From NCBI RefSeq assembly GCF_016862435.1, contig NZ_BOMY01000034.1:186001-250000 (forward strand): a DNA stretch of 64,000 nt. The letters run 5' to 3'. Below are positions 51,475 to 62,454 of this stretch, piece after piece. This stretch comes from Paractinoplanes tereljensis. Its GTDB lineage: Bacteria; Actinomycetota; Actinomycetes; Mycobacteriales; Micromonosporaceae. The notes beneath the pieces were generated by a model. It saw nothing but the letters and a program-made list of their open reading frames with translations, was not told the origin of the DNA and ran no database searches. The position numbers and the translations under genes were made by a program. Position 1 is the stretch's first letter. Each line of letters starts with the position of its first letter.

Positions 51475-52449
51475 ATGTCGGGTGACGCACAGGCGTTCTG
51501 GCTGGCCTCGCCCGGGCAGGGCGAGATCCGTTCGTCCACGCTGCCGGTGCCCGGCCGCGACGACGTGGTGGTCCGCACTCTCCACACCGGGGTGAGTCGC
51601 GGCACCGAGACGCTGGTCTTCACCGGCGCCGTCCCGGAGACCCAATGGGCGTCGATGCGGGCTCCCTTCCAGGAGGGGGACTTCCCGTCCCCGGTCAAGT
51701 ACGGCTACCTGAACGTCGGTGTCGTCGAACACGGTCCGGCTTCGCTGCTGGGCCGAACCGTTTTCTCCCTTTACCCACATCAGACGCGATATGTCGTGCC
51801 GGCCGCCGCGGTCACCGTCGTGCCCGACGGCGTACCCGCACATCGCGCCGTGCTGGCCGGCACGGTGGAGACCGCGGTCAACGCGCTCTGGGACGCCGCC
51901 CCGCTGATCGGCGACAAGATCGCGGTGGTCGGCGGCGGCATGGTCGGTTGCTCGGTCGCCGCGATCGCGGCGACGATTCCCGGCGTACGCGTGCAGTTGG
52001 TTGATGTTGATTCGTCCCGCGCGGCCGTCGCGGATGCACTCGGCGTTGCATTTGCGCACCCGGCCGACGCTTCGGGCGACTGCGACATCGTGATCCACGC
52101 CAGCGCCACCTCGGCCGGCCTGACCAGGTCGCTCGAGCTGCTGGCCCACGAGGGCACCGTCGTCGAGCTGAGCTGGTACGGCGACAAGCAGGTCAGCGTC
52201 CCGCTCGGCGAATTTTTCCACGCCCGCCGGTTGACGATTCGCAGCAGCCAGGTGGGGAACATCGTTCCCGGACGTCGCCGCACCTACGCCGACCGGCTGG
52301 CGCTGTCCCTGGATCTGCTCGCGAACCCCAAGTTCGAGGCTTTGATCACCGGAAGGACCGAGTTCGCCGATCTGCCCGACGTGATGCCGCGGATCGCGGA
52401 CGGTAGCCTTCCCGCCCTCTGCCACGTGATCGACTACCCCGAGGAGTAG
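51475..52449 (+). CDS. MDR-family dehydrogenase, apparently without catalytic zinc site
   Basis: A 324-residue medium-chain dehydrogenase/reductase. The GroES-like half has GVSRGTETLVFTGAVPETQ, without the Cys that normally binds catalytic zinc. The cofactor half has the Rossmann loop VVGGGMVGCSVAAIAA and an Asp after the second strand (QLVDVD), which prefers NAD(H). It resembles BchC-type proteins. It is the first gene of a run with the QueD-like and glycosyltransferase genes, starting after GAGGAG. Confidence 0.82.
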   Translation: MSGDAQAFWLASPGQGEIRSSTLPVPGRDDVVVRTLHTGVSRGTETLVFTGAVPETQWASMRAPFQEGDFPSPVKYGYLNVGVVEHGPASLLGRTVFSLYPHQTRYVVPAAAVTVVPDGVPAHRAVLAGTVETAVNALWDAAPLIGDKIAVVGGGMVGCSVAAIAATIPGVRVQLVDVDSSRAAVADALGVAFAHPADASGDCDIVIHASATSAGLTRSLELLAHEGTVVELSWYGDKQVSVPLGEFFHARRLTIRSSQVGNIVPGRRRTYADRLALSLDLLANPKFEALITGRTEFADLPDVMPRIADGSLPALCHVIDYPEE

Positions 52450-52452
52450 CAC

Positions 52453-52851
52453 TTGTTCAGCGTCACCGTCCGCGACCACATCATGGTCGCCCACAGCTTC
52501 ACCGGCGAGGTCTTCGGCCCGGCCCAGAAGCTGCACGGCGCCACGTTCGTGATCGACGCGACCTTCCGCCGCCCCGAGCTGGACGACGACAACATCGTGG
52601 TGGACATCGGCCGCGCGCTAGACGAGCTGCGCACCATCTGCAGCGCCCTGAGCTACCGCAACCTGGACGACGAGGACGCCTTCAAGGGCATCAACACGTC
52701 CACCGAGTTCCTGGCCAAGGTCATCGCCGACCGCCTGGCCGACAAGGTGGCCTCCGGCGACCTGGGCGCGGGTGCCGCCGGCCTGACCAGCATCTCGGTG
52801 ACCTTGCACGAGTCCCACGTGGCCTGGGCAAGCTACGAGCGCACTCTGTGA
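52453..52851 (+). CDS. 6-pyruvoyl-tetrahydropterin synthase/QueD-like protein with altered active site
   Basis: A 132-residue T-fold protein with the PTPS/QueD ends [22 protein letters not shown] and [12 protein letters not shown]. His14 and His28 match two zinc ligands. The usual His-Gly-His is His28-Gly-Ala30, and no Cys stands a few residues before it, so both the third zinc ligand and the catalytic Cys are missing. It may bind a pterin-like compound with different chemistry. TTG start three bases after the dehydrogenase stop, with GAGGAG inside that gene's end. Confidence 0.8.
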
Positions 52852-54170
52852 GTAGCCCGCTCTGGGCGGTGCTGCCGGGCGGCATTGACGACCCGGCAGC
52901 CCCCAGCGGCGGAAACCGCTACGACCGAGAACTCCTAACCCGCCTAGCGGCCACCCCCACCACCCACAGCGACGCGAGCAGCGCGAGCAGCGCGAGCACC
53001 GCCCGCGATCTTGTGGAATTCCCGCCACCACCCAGCGCCACCTCCACAAGATCACAGGCCAGCGCGGACAGCGCGAGCACCGCCCGCGATCTTGTGGAGT
53101 TCGGGCCGCCACCCAGCGCTAACTCAGCAAGATCGCAGGCCGGCGAGAGCAATCGCGGTCACGCGCGAGATCTAGTGGACTTCCTGCCACCACCCGGCGC
53201 CAACTCCACAAGATCGCGAGGCGGCGAGGATCGCGCGGATGCGTCCGCGGTGCGGGATGTGCACGAGATCGCTATTGGCGGCTCCTGGCCGGTCCCGGCC
53301 GCGCCGGCGCGCGCCGCACTAGATCGCGCCCTCCGCGACATTCCGGACAAGTCCGATGTGCTCATTGACGGGCTGGTCGCCTGCGGGGTGCCGGAGCTTC
53401 TCGAGCCGCACCGGCACCGGCTTCGCCTGATCGTGCTGGTCCATCTGCCGCTGAGCGATGAAACCGGCCTCGATGCCGCCGAGGCCGCACGGCTGCGCGA
53501 GAAGGAACGCGCGACGCTGCACCTCGCCACCCGGGTGATCGCCACCAGCAACGCCGCCGCCCAGCGCATTTCCGACATGCACGACCTGACCGATGTCGCG
53601 GTCGCGGTGCCGGGCGTCGACCCCGCTCCCCTGGCTGCCCCCTCGGCGGACGGCGGCCGGCTGCTCTGCGTCGCCGCGGTCACCCCGCGCAAGGGCCAGG
53701 ATCTGCTGGTCACGGCCCTGGAGCTGGATCTCGCCGAGCTGAGCTGGAGCTGCACGTTCGTCGGCGCGCTGATCCGCCCGGTCGCGCACACCAGCGCGAA
53801 CATCCGCTTCACCGGCCCAAAGGCCGGCGTCGACCTGGACGCCGCCTACGCGAACGCGGACCTCTTCGTCCTCCCGTCGCGCGCCGAGACCTACGGCATG
53901 GTGGTCACCGAGGCCCTGGCCCGCGGCCTCCCGGTGCTCGCCACCGACGTCGGCGGCGTCGCCGAGGCCCTGGGCCACGCCCCGGACGGCACCCTCCCCG
54001 GCTTCCTGATCCCCCCGGACGACCCGACTGCGCTGGCCGCCGCGCTACACCGCTGGCTGACCGAGCCAGCGCTGCGCGCCGAGCTGCGCGCCTCCGCCGC
54101 CGCCCGCCGCGAAACACTCCCGACCTGGACCGACACCGCCCGCCACATCAGCGCAGCGCTGAACGCATGA
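52848..54170 (+). CDS. Family 4 glycosyltransferase with in-frame palindromic-repeat insertion
   Basis: A 440-residue GT-B enzyme. The C-terminal half has [40 protein letters not shown] and [15 protein letters not shown], the nucleotide-sugar-binding pattern. The N-terminal half starts [20 protein letters not shown]. Between residues about 40 and 134 an insertion made of three 27-residue repeats ([13 protein letters not shown] and similar) separates [10 protein letters not shown] from [11 protein letters not shown], which should be nearly adjacent. GTG overlaps the QueD-like stop (GTGA). It probably glycosylates a product of this cluster. Confidence 0.88.
53007..53215. repeat. Three tandem copies of a 47-bp palindromic element, 81-bp period, inside a coding gene
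   Basis: Units at 53007-53053, 53088-53134 and 53169-53215 each begin GATCTTGTGGA (third: GATCTAGTGGA) and end TCCACAAGATC (second: TCAGCAAGATC), with a 25-bp core rich in GCCACCACC. The start-to-start distance is exactly 81 bp twice, which is 27 codons, so the reading frame of the glycosyltransferase is kept. Confidence 0.92.
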
Positions 54171-54229
54171 CACCCACCCCCGCCGCGGGCTTAGCCCGCC
54201 GCCCAAGCCGCCGCGGGCTCAGCCTGCCG

Positions 54230-54600
54230 CCCGAACCGCCGCGCGCTCAGCCCGCGGCCCGCACAAGCCACGCGCTCGGCCCGGCGCGGCCTCAACCCGC
54301 CACCCAAACGGCGCACGCTCAGCCCGCCGGCCAAACCCGCCGCTGGCTCAGGCCGCCACCCCCGCTGCCGCGGGCTCAGCCAGCCGCCCGAAACCGCTGC
54401 GGGCTCAGCCCGCGGCCCGCACAAGCCACGCGCTCGGCTCGCCGCGGCCTCAACCCGCCACCCAACGGCGCACGCTCAGCCCGCCGGCCAAACCCGCCGC
54501 TGGCTCAGGCCGCCACCCCCGCTGCCGCGGGCTCAGCCAGCCGCCCGAAACCGCCGCGGGCTCGGCCCACAGCCCGCACAAGCCGCGCGGTCGGCGTGAC
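54230..54600. repeat. ~157-bp tandem repeat, about 2.4 copies
   Basis: The marker GCACAAGCC occurs at 54261, 54419 and 54576, 158 and 157 bases apart. Around it the copies agree almost base for base, for example CACGCTCAGCCCGCCGGCC and CTCAGGCCGCCACCCCCGC in units one and two. One-base indels break any common reading frame. Confidence 0.88.
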
Positions 54601-54670
54601 GCCGTGGCCGTTGTGCGCTTGGCGTCACACGCATCGCGGGCGGCTCGCTCAACGCGGGCGAGGACAGCAA

Positions 54671-54742
54671 CGTGTTGACCGTCAACACGACATCAACACG
54701 TCAACACGTTTGCGTGGACGTCAATGTTGATTCAGTCAACAT
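54671..54742. promoter_or_regulatory. TGTTGAC/GTCAACA operator-like array
   Basis: A perfect 19-bp palindrome CGTGTTGACCGTCAACACG lies at 54671-54689. Further half-sites are ATCAACA at 54692, GTCAACA at 54700, TGTTGAT at 54725 and GTCAACA at 54735, the last two forming an inverted pair. All lie within 100 bp of the methyltransferase start, in DNA of lower GC than its surroundings, and are likely a multi-site regulator target. Confidence 0.6.
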
Positions 54743-60620: not shown

Positions 60621-60667
60621 GATCTTGAGGACTTCCCGCGCGGGCCGAACGCCATTTCGACAAGGTC
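60621..60667. repeat. 47-bp palindromic element, diverged intergenic copy
   Basis: It starts GATCTTGAGGACTTCCCG and ends TCGACAAGGTC. Length and arm placement equal those of the elements in the glycosyltransferase gene, but each arm carries one or two changes. Confidence 0.7.
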
Positions 60668-61989: not shown

Positions 61990-62454
61990 GAACCGGATCG
62001 TATGCCGACCACGCACGCCCCACCGCCCGCGCACGCCCACCGCCGGCACGCACGCTCCATCCCCGATCGCGAGCAGCACCCAGGTTGCCGTCGCGCTACG
62101 GACTACCGCGGCCCTGACCAGCTACGACAGCCACCGCCCCGGTGCCCAACGCACACCGCCTGGTGCTCACAGCCCGCCGCCCGGCACCCGAGGCCCGGCA
62201 CCCGAGGCCCGCCATCCGGTGCCCGAGGCCCGACCGAGGCCCGGGGCCTGCCATCCGGGGCCCGAGGCCCGCCACCCGGCACCAGATCTAGCTGAGTTGC
62301 TGTTCGGACCGGACAGAAGGTCCACAAGATCGCGGCGCTGGTGCACCGCCGCAGAGCGATGCGGACGCTTTGGGCGTTTAGCCGGATGACTTGTCCAGAT
62401 GGGGGCCGCCGTGCAGGCATCGATCTTGGATCTGACACCGACGAGCTTCCCGCG
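61990..62454. other. 465-bp gap: low-complexity repeat and palindromic element
   Basis: Around 62165-62285 short units like GGCACCCGAGGCCC and CCGAGGCCCGCC follow each other irregularly. Directly after comes a 47-bp palindromic element. No gene is supported. Confidence 0.6.
62285..62331. repeat. 47-bp palindromic element, diverged intergenic copy
   Basis: It starts GATCTAGCTGA and ends TCCACAAGATC with the same 47-bp length as the coding copies. The right arm is identical to units one and three at 53.0-53.2 kb, while the core is unrelated. Confidence 0.7.

What the first reader, a model, noticed from the sequence alone, without database searches (positions are those of the whole stretch)
53007..53215. 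A palindromic DNA element has expanded in frame inside a glycosyltransferase gene
Three copies of a 47-bp palindrome (arms GATCTTGTGGA/TCCACAAGATC) repeat with an exact 81-bp period, so each adds 27 codons ([15 protein letters not shown] type). They lie where the GT-B fold should run from [10 protein letters not shown] to [11 protein letters not shown] with few residues between. Two further 47-bp copies at 60621-60667 and 62285-62331 are intergenic, so this is a small mobile or copying element that has entered a gene without breaking it. It recalls Rickettsia palindromic elements, which also insert in frame. That parallel, and the idea that the added peptide forms a surface loop, are inferences.
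Basis: partly seen in the sequence, partly recalled or inferred. Interest (0 to 1): 0.82.

Follow-up and report, generated by a model that had tools for sequence, protein, structure and literature searches.

The report
Palindromic DNA repeat inside protein genes
A 47-base palindromic DNA element that appears to be copied around the chromosomes of certain soil actinobacteria also lies in frame inside several protein genes, and in this glycosyltransferase it has become a three-unit, 81-residue array, much like the coding palindromes described in Rickettsia and a few other microbes.

Summary
Three 47-bp palindromes with exact 81-bp spacing lie in frame in a group-1 glycosyltransferase gene (52848-54170), and two imperfect copies lie between genes. 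They belong to a dispersed family: 92 copies at up to 3 mismatches in this 10.8-Mb genome, control 0; matches in 12 of 67 genomes of the genus; a looser form in 27 of 300 genomes and 6 of 44 genera of the family. Of 29 other best-match loci scanned, only that of Paractinoplanes toevensis has the element in this loop, one copy. Elements lie inside open frames of seven gene types in six genomes, mostly in one reading phase. Among similar unlinked copies, most sides lose identity at the palindrome's ends, so 47 bp is the copied unit in several genomes; in P. toevensis a larger unit is common. Intergenic copies favour convergent gaps. The six richest genus genomes have no Y1/RAYT match, so this is not a RAYT-driven REP there. 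It works like Rickettsia palindromic elements, but is shorter and mostly intergenic. The copying machinery is unknown.

The parts
52848..54170 (+). Glycosyltransferase gene (group 1), 440 aa, host of the in-frame array
   Evidence: Open frame; Pfam Glycos_transf_1 E 7.1e-27; dN/dS about 0.16 before and 0.23 after the insert against P. toevensis
52979..53221 (+). Three tandem 81-bp (27-codon) units, each holding one palindrome
   Evidence: the repeat finder D1, spacing 81, 81; folded as RNA z = -5.42 against 200 shuffles
53007..53053 (.). 47-bp palindrome copy 1, reads [16 protein letters not shown]
53088..53134 (.). 47-bp palindrome copy 2, reads [16 protein letters not shown]
53169..53215 (.). 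47-bp palindrome copy 3, reads [16 protein letters not shown]
60621..60667 (.). Intergenic copy between the recQ-like gene and a minus-strand gene (convergent)
   Evidence: gene calls of my own script
62285..62331 (.). Intergenic copy between two minus-strand genes
   Evidence: gene calls of my own script

Best explanation
The feature is an insertion of a dispersed, non-autonomous 47-bp palindromic element that is copied around the genome by machinery not identified here. A copy entered the glycosyltransferase gene, probably in the common ancestor of this species and P. toevensis, at a length-variable place early in the N-terminal domain. In this lineage palindrome plus spacer was then duplicated in tandem (81 bp, a multiple of 3), giving three 27-residue units. 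The gene kept its frame and both flanking parts remain under purifying selection, so the protein most likely carries the array as a tolerated, probably disordered loop. Shown: the element family and its numbers, a 47-bp unit in several genomes, lineage-specific interiors, in-frame copies in other genes, selection on the flanks. Inferred: a single ancestral insertion, loop disorder, near-neutrality, and copying through a hairpin or single-stranded intermediate by an unlinked enzyme.
For: 92 copies at up to 3 mismatches in the own genome, control 0; 12 of 67 genus genomes; the exact form in named contigs only of P. toevensis (10) and A. lutulentus (1). Similar unlinked copies (27 or more of 33 interior bases): no flank homology on 138 of 142 and 184 of 208 sides in two g20 genomes, 103 of 122 in G007 and 36 of 44 in G000; on those sides identity is near background from the first flanking base in g20, with bases -1 and -2 somewhat raised in G007 and -1 in G000 (sides are pairwise, not independent). 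Nearest neighbours in the same genome for 37% (G000), 80% (G009), 52% (G004), 98% (G007) and 100% (G298), where 18% is expected. The ABC-gene copy of G000 matches a copy on another contig of its own genome at 44 of 47 bases, but the copy in the same linker of P. toevensis at 35 of 47. Loop occupancy: 3 copies here, 1 in P. toevensis, 0 in G004. dN 0.097/dS 0.61 over 33 codons before and dN 0.070/dS 0.30 over 303 codons after the insert.
Against: No copying enzyme was found. In P. toevensis 37 of 64 sides do have flank homology, so a larger unit moves there. No clean 47-bp empty site was seen; the one occupied/empty comparison differs by about 264 bp. The five G009 regions that align on both flanks with held G000 sequence are occupied in both genomes, so part of the set is old, though most of that sequence was fetched because it holds elements. 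The P. toevensis loop copy is nearest to G000 loop copies 2 and 1 only in a three-way tie with an unrelated copy (37 of 47); loop copy 3 ranks 25th. G000 elements are nearer to P. toevensis ones (47%) than to each other (37%). No protein or RNA data.
Confidence: 0.72

Rival explanations
1. The palindromes are functional hairpins, such as bidirectional transcription terminators or mRNA stabilisers, kept at gene ends by selection; the copies in genes are accidental.
For: In four whole contigs 11 of 16 occupied gaps are convergent, against 15% of gaps by number (p 1.7e-6) and 27% by length (p 6e-4); 0 of 181 divergent gaps are occupied. Arm positions 8-12 covary in G000 and in the mainly g20 group (0 of 2000 shuffles each). 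Strong fold.
Against: No T run beside the palindrome in pooled flank counts. Arm covariation is not seen in G009 and G007 and is reversed in G004; the G007 centre anti-pairs. 55 of 67 genus genomes have no match at up to 3 mismatches. Avoidance of divergent gaps is also what tolerance of insertions would give.
Confidence: 0.2
2. REP element moved by a RAYT (Y1 tyrosine transposase).
For: Short palindrome, intergenic, clustered, lineage-specific. Three genomes with few copies do have Y1 matches: G048 (4 copies, 1 match), G082 (2, 1) and G014 (1, 3).
Against: PF01797 gives 0 matches in the six richest genus genomes G000, G009, G007, G004, G071 and G063, while 21 of 67 genomes match and the E. 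coli control rings. No GTAG or CGTC tag in the flank counts.
Confidence: 0.03
3. Ordinary low-complexity loop expansion in one gene, without any mobile element.
For: The loop varies in length among orthologues, and G019 has its own tandem repeats there.
Against: The same palindrome is dispersed genome-wide and occurs in other genera.
Confidence: 0.03

Closest known systems
Rickettsia palindromic elements (Ogata et al. 2000, 2002; not held, known here only from passages of PMC10969869 and PMC3733652)
   Same: Palindrome found in frame inside unrelated genes and also elsewhere; recurring peptide; differs between species
   Different: RPEs are about 150 bp in an obligate intracellular bacterium; this unit is 47 bp, in free-living high-GC actinobacteria, mostly intergenic, with tandem in-frame arrays. 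No sequence comparison with RPEs was made
Coding palindromes of Wolbachia and Methanocaldococcus jannaschii, and PARCEL repeats of Mollicutes (PMC2996958, passages)
   Same: Palindromic DNA read as protein; PARCELs form tandem coding arrays
   Different: Other phyla; not compared by sequence here
REP elements, GTAG- and CGTC-tagged (PMC3733652, abstract start and passages)
   Same: Short dispersed palindromes in many copies
   Different: 47 bp rather than 20-40, no tag seen, no Y1 match in the richest genus genomes
MITEs (PMC10969869, passages)
   Same: Non-autonomous, dispersed, sometimes fused in frame
   Different: No target duplication and no parent IS identified here

Membership tests
Protein-coding palindromic repeats (RPE-like behaviour) | Copies in frame inside several unrelated genes | tested here: met
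   Seven gene types with a frame open on both sides
Protein-coding palindromic repeats (RPE-like behaviour) | Recurrent reading phase/peptide | tested here: inconclusive
   Phase 0 six times, phase 1 twice, phase 2 never (one count per gene and phase). Phase 0 also has fewest stops, which the column consensus explains
Rickettsia palindromic elements proper | Sequence relationship to RPE families | not tested
   No RPE sequence was fetched
Rickettsia palindromic elements proper | Unit of about 150 bp (size from a PMC10969869 passage) | tested here: not met
   Unit is 47 bp in several genomes, although a larger unit of roughly 150 bp is common in P. toevensis
REP/RAYT | Cognate Y1 transposase in the genome | tested here: not met
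   0 matches in each of the 6 richest genus genomes; not tested in g20
REP/RAYT | GTAG or CGTC tag at one end | tested here: not met
   Flank counts pooled over both sides show no such run; highest single column C at -1, 71% in G000
MITE | Target-site duplication | tested here: inconclusive
   No clean empty site among the loci held
MITE | Autonomous parent IS with the same ends | not tested
   No systematic search; one adjacent 1-kb repeat family in g20 looks like a paralogous gene, judged from reading frames only
Intrinsic terminator | Hairpin followed by a T run | tested here: not met
   No column beside the palindrome has T as its commonest base within 20 bases, nor a run of A on the reversed sides

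The most novel reading that the evidence does not exclude
A new class of minimal mobile DNA: a 47-bp palindrome with defined ends that spreads without a RAYT, probably by a hairpin or template-switch copying mechanism, and works across the Micromonosporaceae as a recurrent source of new protein linkers, some of which multiply in frame.
Probability: 0.3. Interest if true: 0.85.

Novelty: new variant of a known kind. Interest (0 to 1): 0.66.

Why it matters
The passages I read cite in-frame coding palindromes for Rickettsia, Wolbachia, Mollicutes and the archaeon M. jannaschii, mostly host-dependent microbes with small genomes. The same behaviour in large-genome soil actinobacteria weakens the idea that it is a by-product of reduced genomes. 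It also offers related species with 3, 1 and 0 copies in one gene, in which protein tolerance, tandem growth and the copying enzyme can be tested.

Tried and rejected
RAYT-driven REP: rejected for the rich genomes of the genus. Viral carriage: the four viral-contig matches have interiors that do not look palindromic by eye, and two are near-identical. Rfam family: nothing near a curated threshold in 52400-54400. Translation-level selection on intergenic copies: phase 0 looks unusually open against pair shuffles, but sampling columns independently gives nothing beyond chance, so I withdrew it. Uniform covariation as proof of structure: holds in two of five groups only. A 1-kb repeat next to g20 palindromes looked like a transposon but reads as a paralogous gene with its 5' region. 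Of 14 clusters that my script flagged as spanned by an open frame, five (C30, L200, L240, L276, L285) were dropped for negative codon scores. The glycosyltransferase and the heparinase-like gene also score negative and were kept because orthologues or a Pfam match show the gene; this is judgement. Heparinase orthologues could not be searched. Two g20 loci are held twice (L079 in L278, L090 in L297), and the 'Micromonospora' group includes one locus of another genus (L091, G105); identical sequences were collapsed in the tests.

Full report
Observation. The window has three 47-bp palindromes at 53007, 53088 and 53169, at exact 81-bp spacing, in an uninterrupted frame 52848-54170. The exact two-armed pattern occurs once and never in 100 shuffles. 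A relaxed detector finds 5 family members in the window against 0 in the reversed window at up to 2 outer mismatches, 5 against 1 at 3 and 9 against 4 at 4, so only the five are trusted. The gene is a group-1 glycosyltransferase with dehydrogenase-like, pterin synthase, methyltransferase and LPG-synthase-like neighbours.

Where it is from. The exact palindrome occurs in named contigs only of Paractinoplanes toevensis (10) and Actinoplanes lutulentus (1); the window's own genome may be left out there. Contig lengths identify G009 as P. toevensis and G063 as A. lutulentus. Genus g20 is presumably Micromonospora; that name comes from no call.

Family. At up to 3 mismatches: G000 92, G009 71, G007 42, G004 21, G071 19, G063 8, six genomes with 1-4, and 55 of 67 with none; control 0. 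The looser pattern matches 27 of 300 family genomes in 6 of 44 genera and also finds copies in G008 and more in G014. With exact outer 7-base arms G007 has 129 matches. In the loci held, 239 of 249 exact-arm pairs with spacers of 5-79 have a spacer of 33; most loci were fetched by that spacing, so this is partly by construction.

Unit of copying. I compared unlinked copies with at least 27 of 33 interior bases equal. Sides without flank homology number 138 of 142 (G201), 184 of 208 (G298), 103 of 122 (G007), 27 of 64 (G009) and 36 of 44 (G000). On them identity drops from the arms, which are fixed by the search, to about 0.3-0.4 at base -1 in the two g20 genomes; in G007, G009 and G000 bases -1 or -2 are raised to 0.6-0.7. 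In P. toevensis many copies share a larger unit of roughly 150 bp. Interiors are most alike within a genome except in G000, whose nearest neighbours are 37% own and 47% P. toevensis. This fits copying within lineages.

Inside genes. (1) This glycosyltransferase, 3 copies, and 1 in P. toevensis. (2) A fused ABC exporter, one copy in the linker of both species. (3) A heparinase-like gene with about eight repeats of the peptide, four with exact outer arms. (4) An MFS transporter with two copies between its halves, phases 0 and 1. (5) A SWIM-like protein of G004, two copies; label from a motif read by eye, no Pfam match. (6) A membrane protein in three g20 genomes; the one scanned has no Pfam match. 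(7) An MFS transporter in G298, phase 1; its G201 orthologue carries the element too but has a stop upstream. One count per gene and phase gives phase 0 six times, phase 1 twice, phase 2 never. Of 165 clusters with enough flank (two loci counted twice), 14 were flagged and 9 accepted; case 5 came and the P. toevensis loop. All accepted sites look like linkers or loops, judged from sequence.

Selection. Against P. toevensis dN/dS is 0.16 over 33 codons before the insert and 0.23 over 303 codons after it; among the three 27-codon units it is 0.35-0.55, on few changes.

Intergenic copies. In 1.04 Mb of whole contigs 48 elements were detected. Two at contig ends were not assigned; 3 are in the glycosyltransferase and 43 in intergenic gaps, which are 13% of the sequence. 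Of 16 occupied gaps 11 are convergent, 5 same-strand, 0 divergent. The contigs were chosen because they hold elements, and the gene calls come from my own codon script, which missed the start of the glycosyltransferase.

Structure. Arm positions 8-12 covary within G000 and within the mainly g20 group (0 of 2000 shuffles reach the value), not in G009 or G007, and are reversed in G004 (13 of 2000 as low). The centre of G007 elements is conserved as mismatched. So outer palindromy is maintained in some lineages, by selection or by template-switch correction; these cannot be told apart here.

Literature. The listings shown for seven searches hold no report that I recognise as this element; several lists were capped, and the hits for the bare arm sequence look unrelated by title. 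Passages of three papers were read. The survey of tagged palindromes has no mention of Actinobacteria, Actinoplanes or Micromonospora in its text. The library is open-access only, so absence is weak.

Verdict. Real, not chance. The copying mechanism is open.

Noticed in passing
window 54170-54730: GC-rich low-complexity repeat (GCTCAGCC-type, spacing roughly 30-70 bp) between the glycosyltransferase and the methyltransferase gene.
   Followed up: no
L199-L215 (P. toevensis): Many palindromes are the centre of a larger dispersed unit of roughly 150 bp sharing one or both flanks, a possible composite element.
   Followed up: partly
L277, L278, L294, L301, L305, L312, L314, L316: Genus g20 genomes hold several copies of a gene that reads as lysozyme-like by eye, with a long conserved 5' region; in 6 of 8 aligned copies the palindrome lies at the end of that region.
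   Followed up: partly
L148 6340-7000 (G000 C20:186340-187000): An array of about 72-bp degenerate relatives of the element (peptide DLEKLTLGTNTTSTT) between convergent genes; the orthologous P. toevensis site holds a single palindrome.
   Followed up: partly
L041 (G019): An unrelated tandem duplication (DDQTPSAVRRE-type) in the same glycosyltransferase loop, so the site tolerates expansions of different origin.
   Followed up: no
G000 contigs C16, C19, C20, C24, C28, C35, C36, C57, C67: Several contigs end within a few hundred bases of palindromes, so the assembly probably undercounts them.
   Followed up: no
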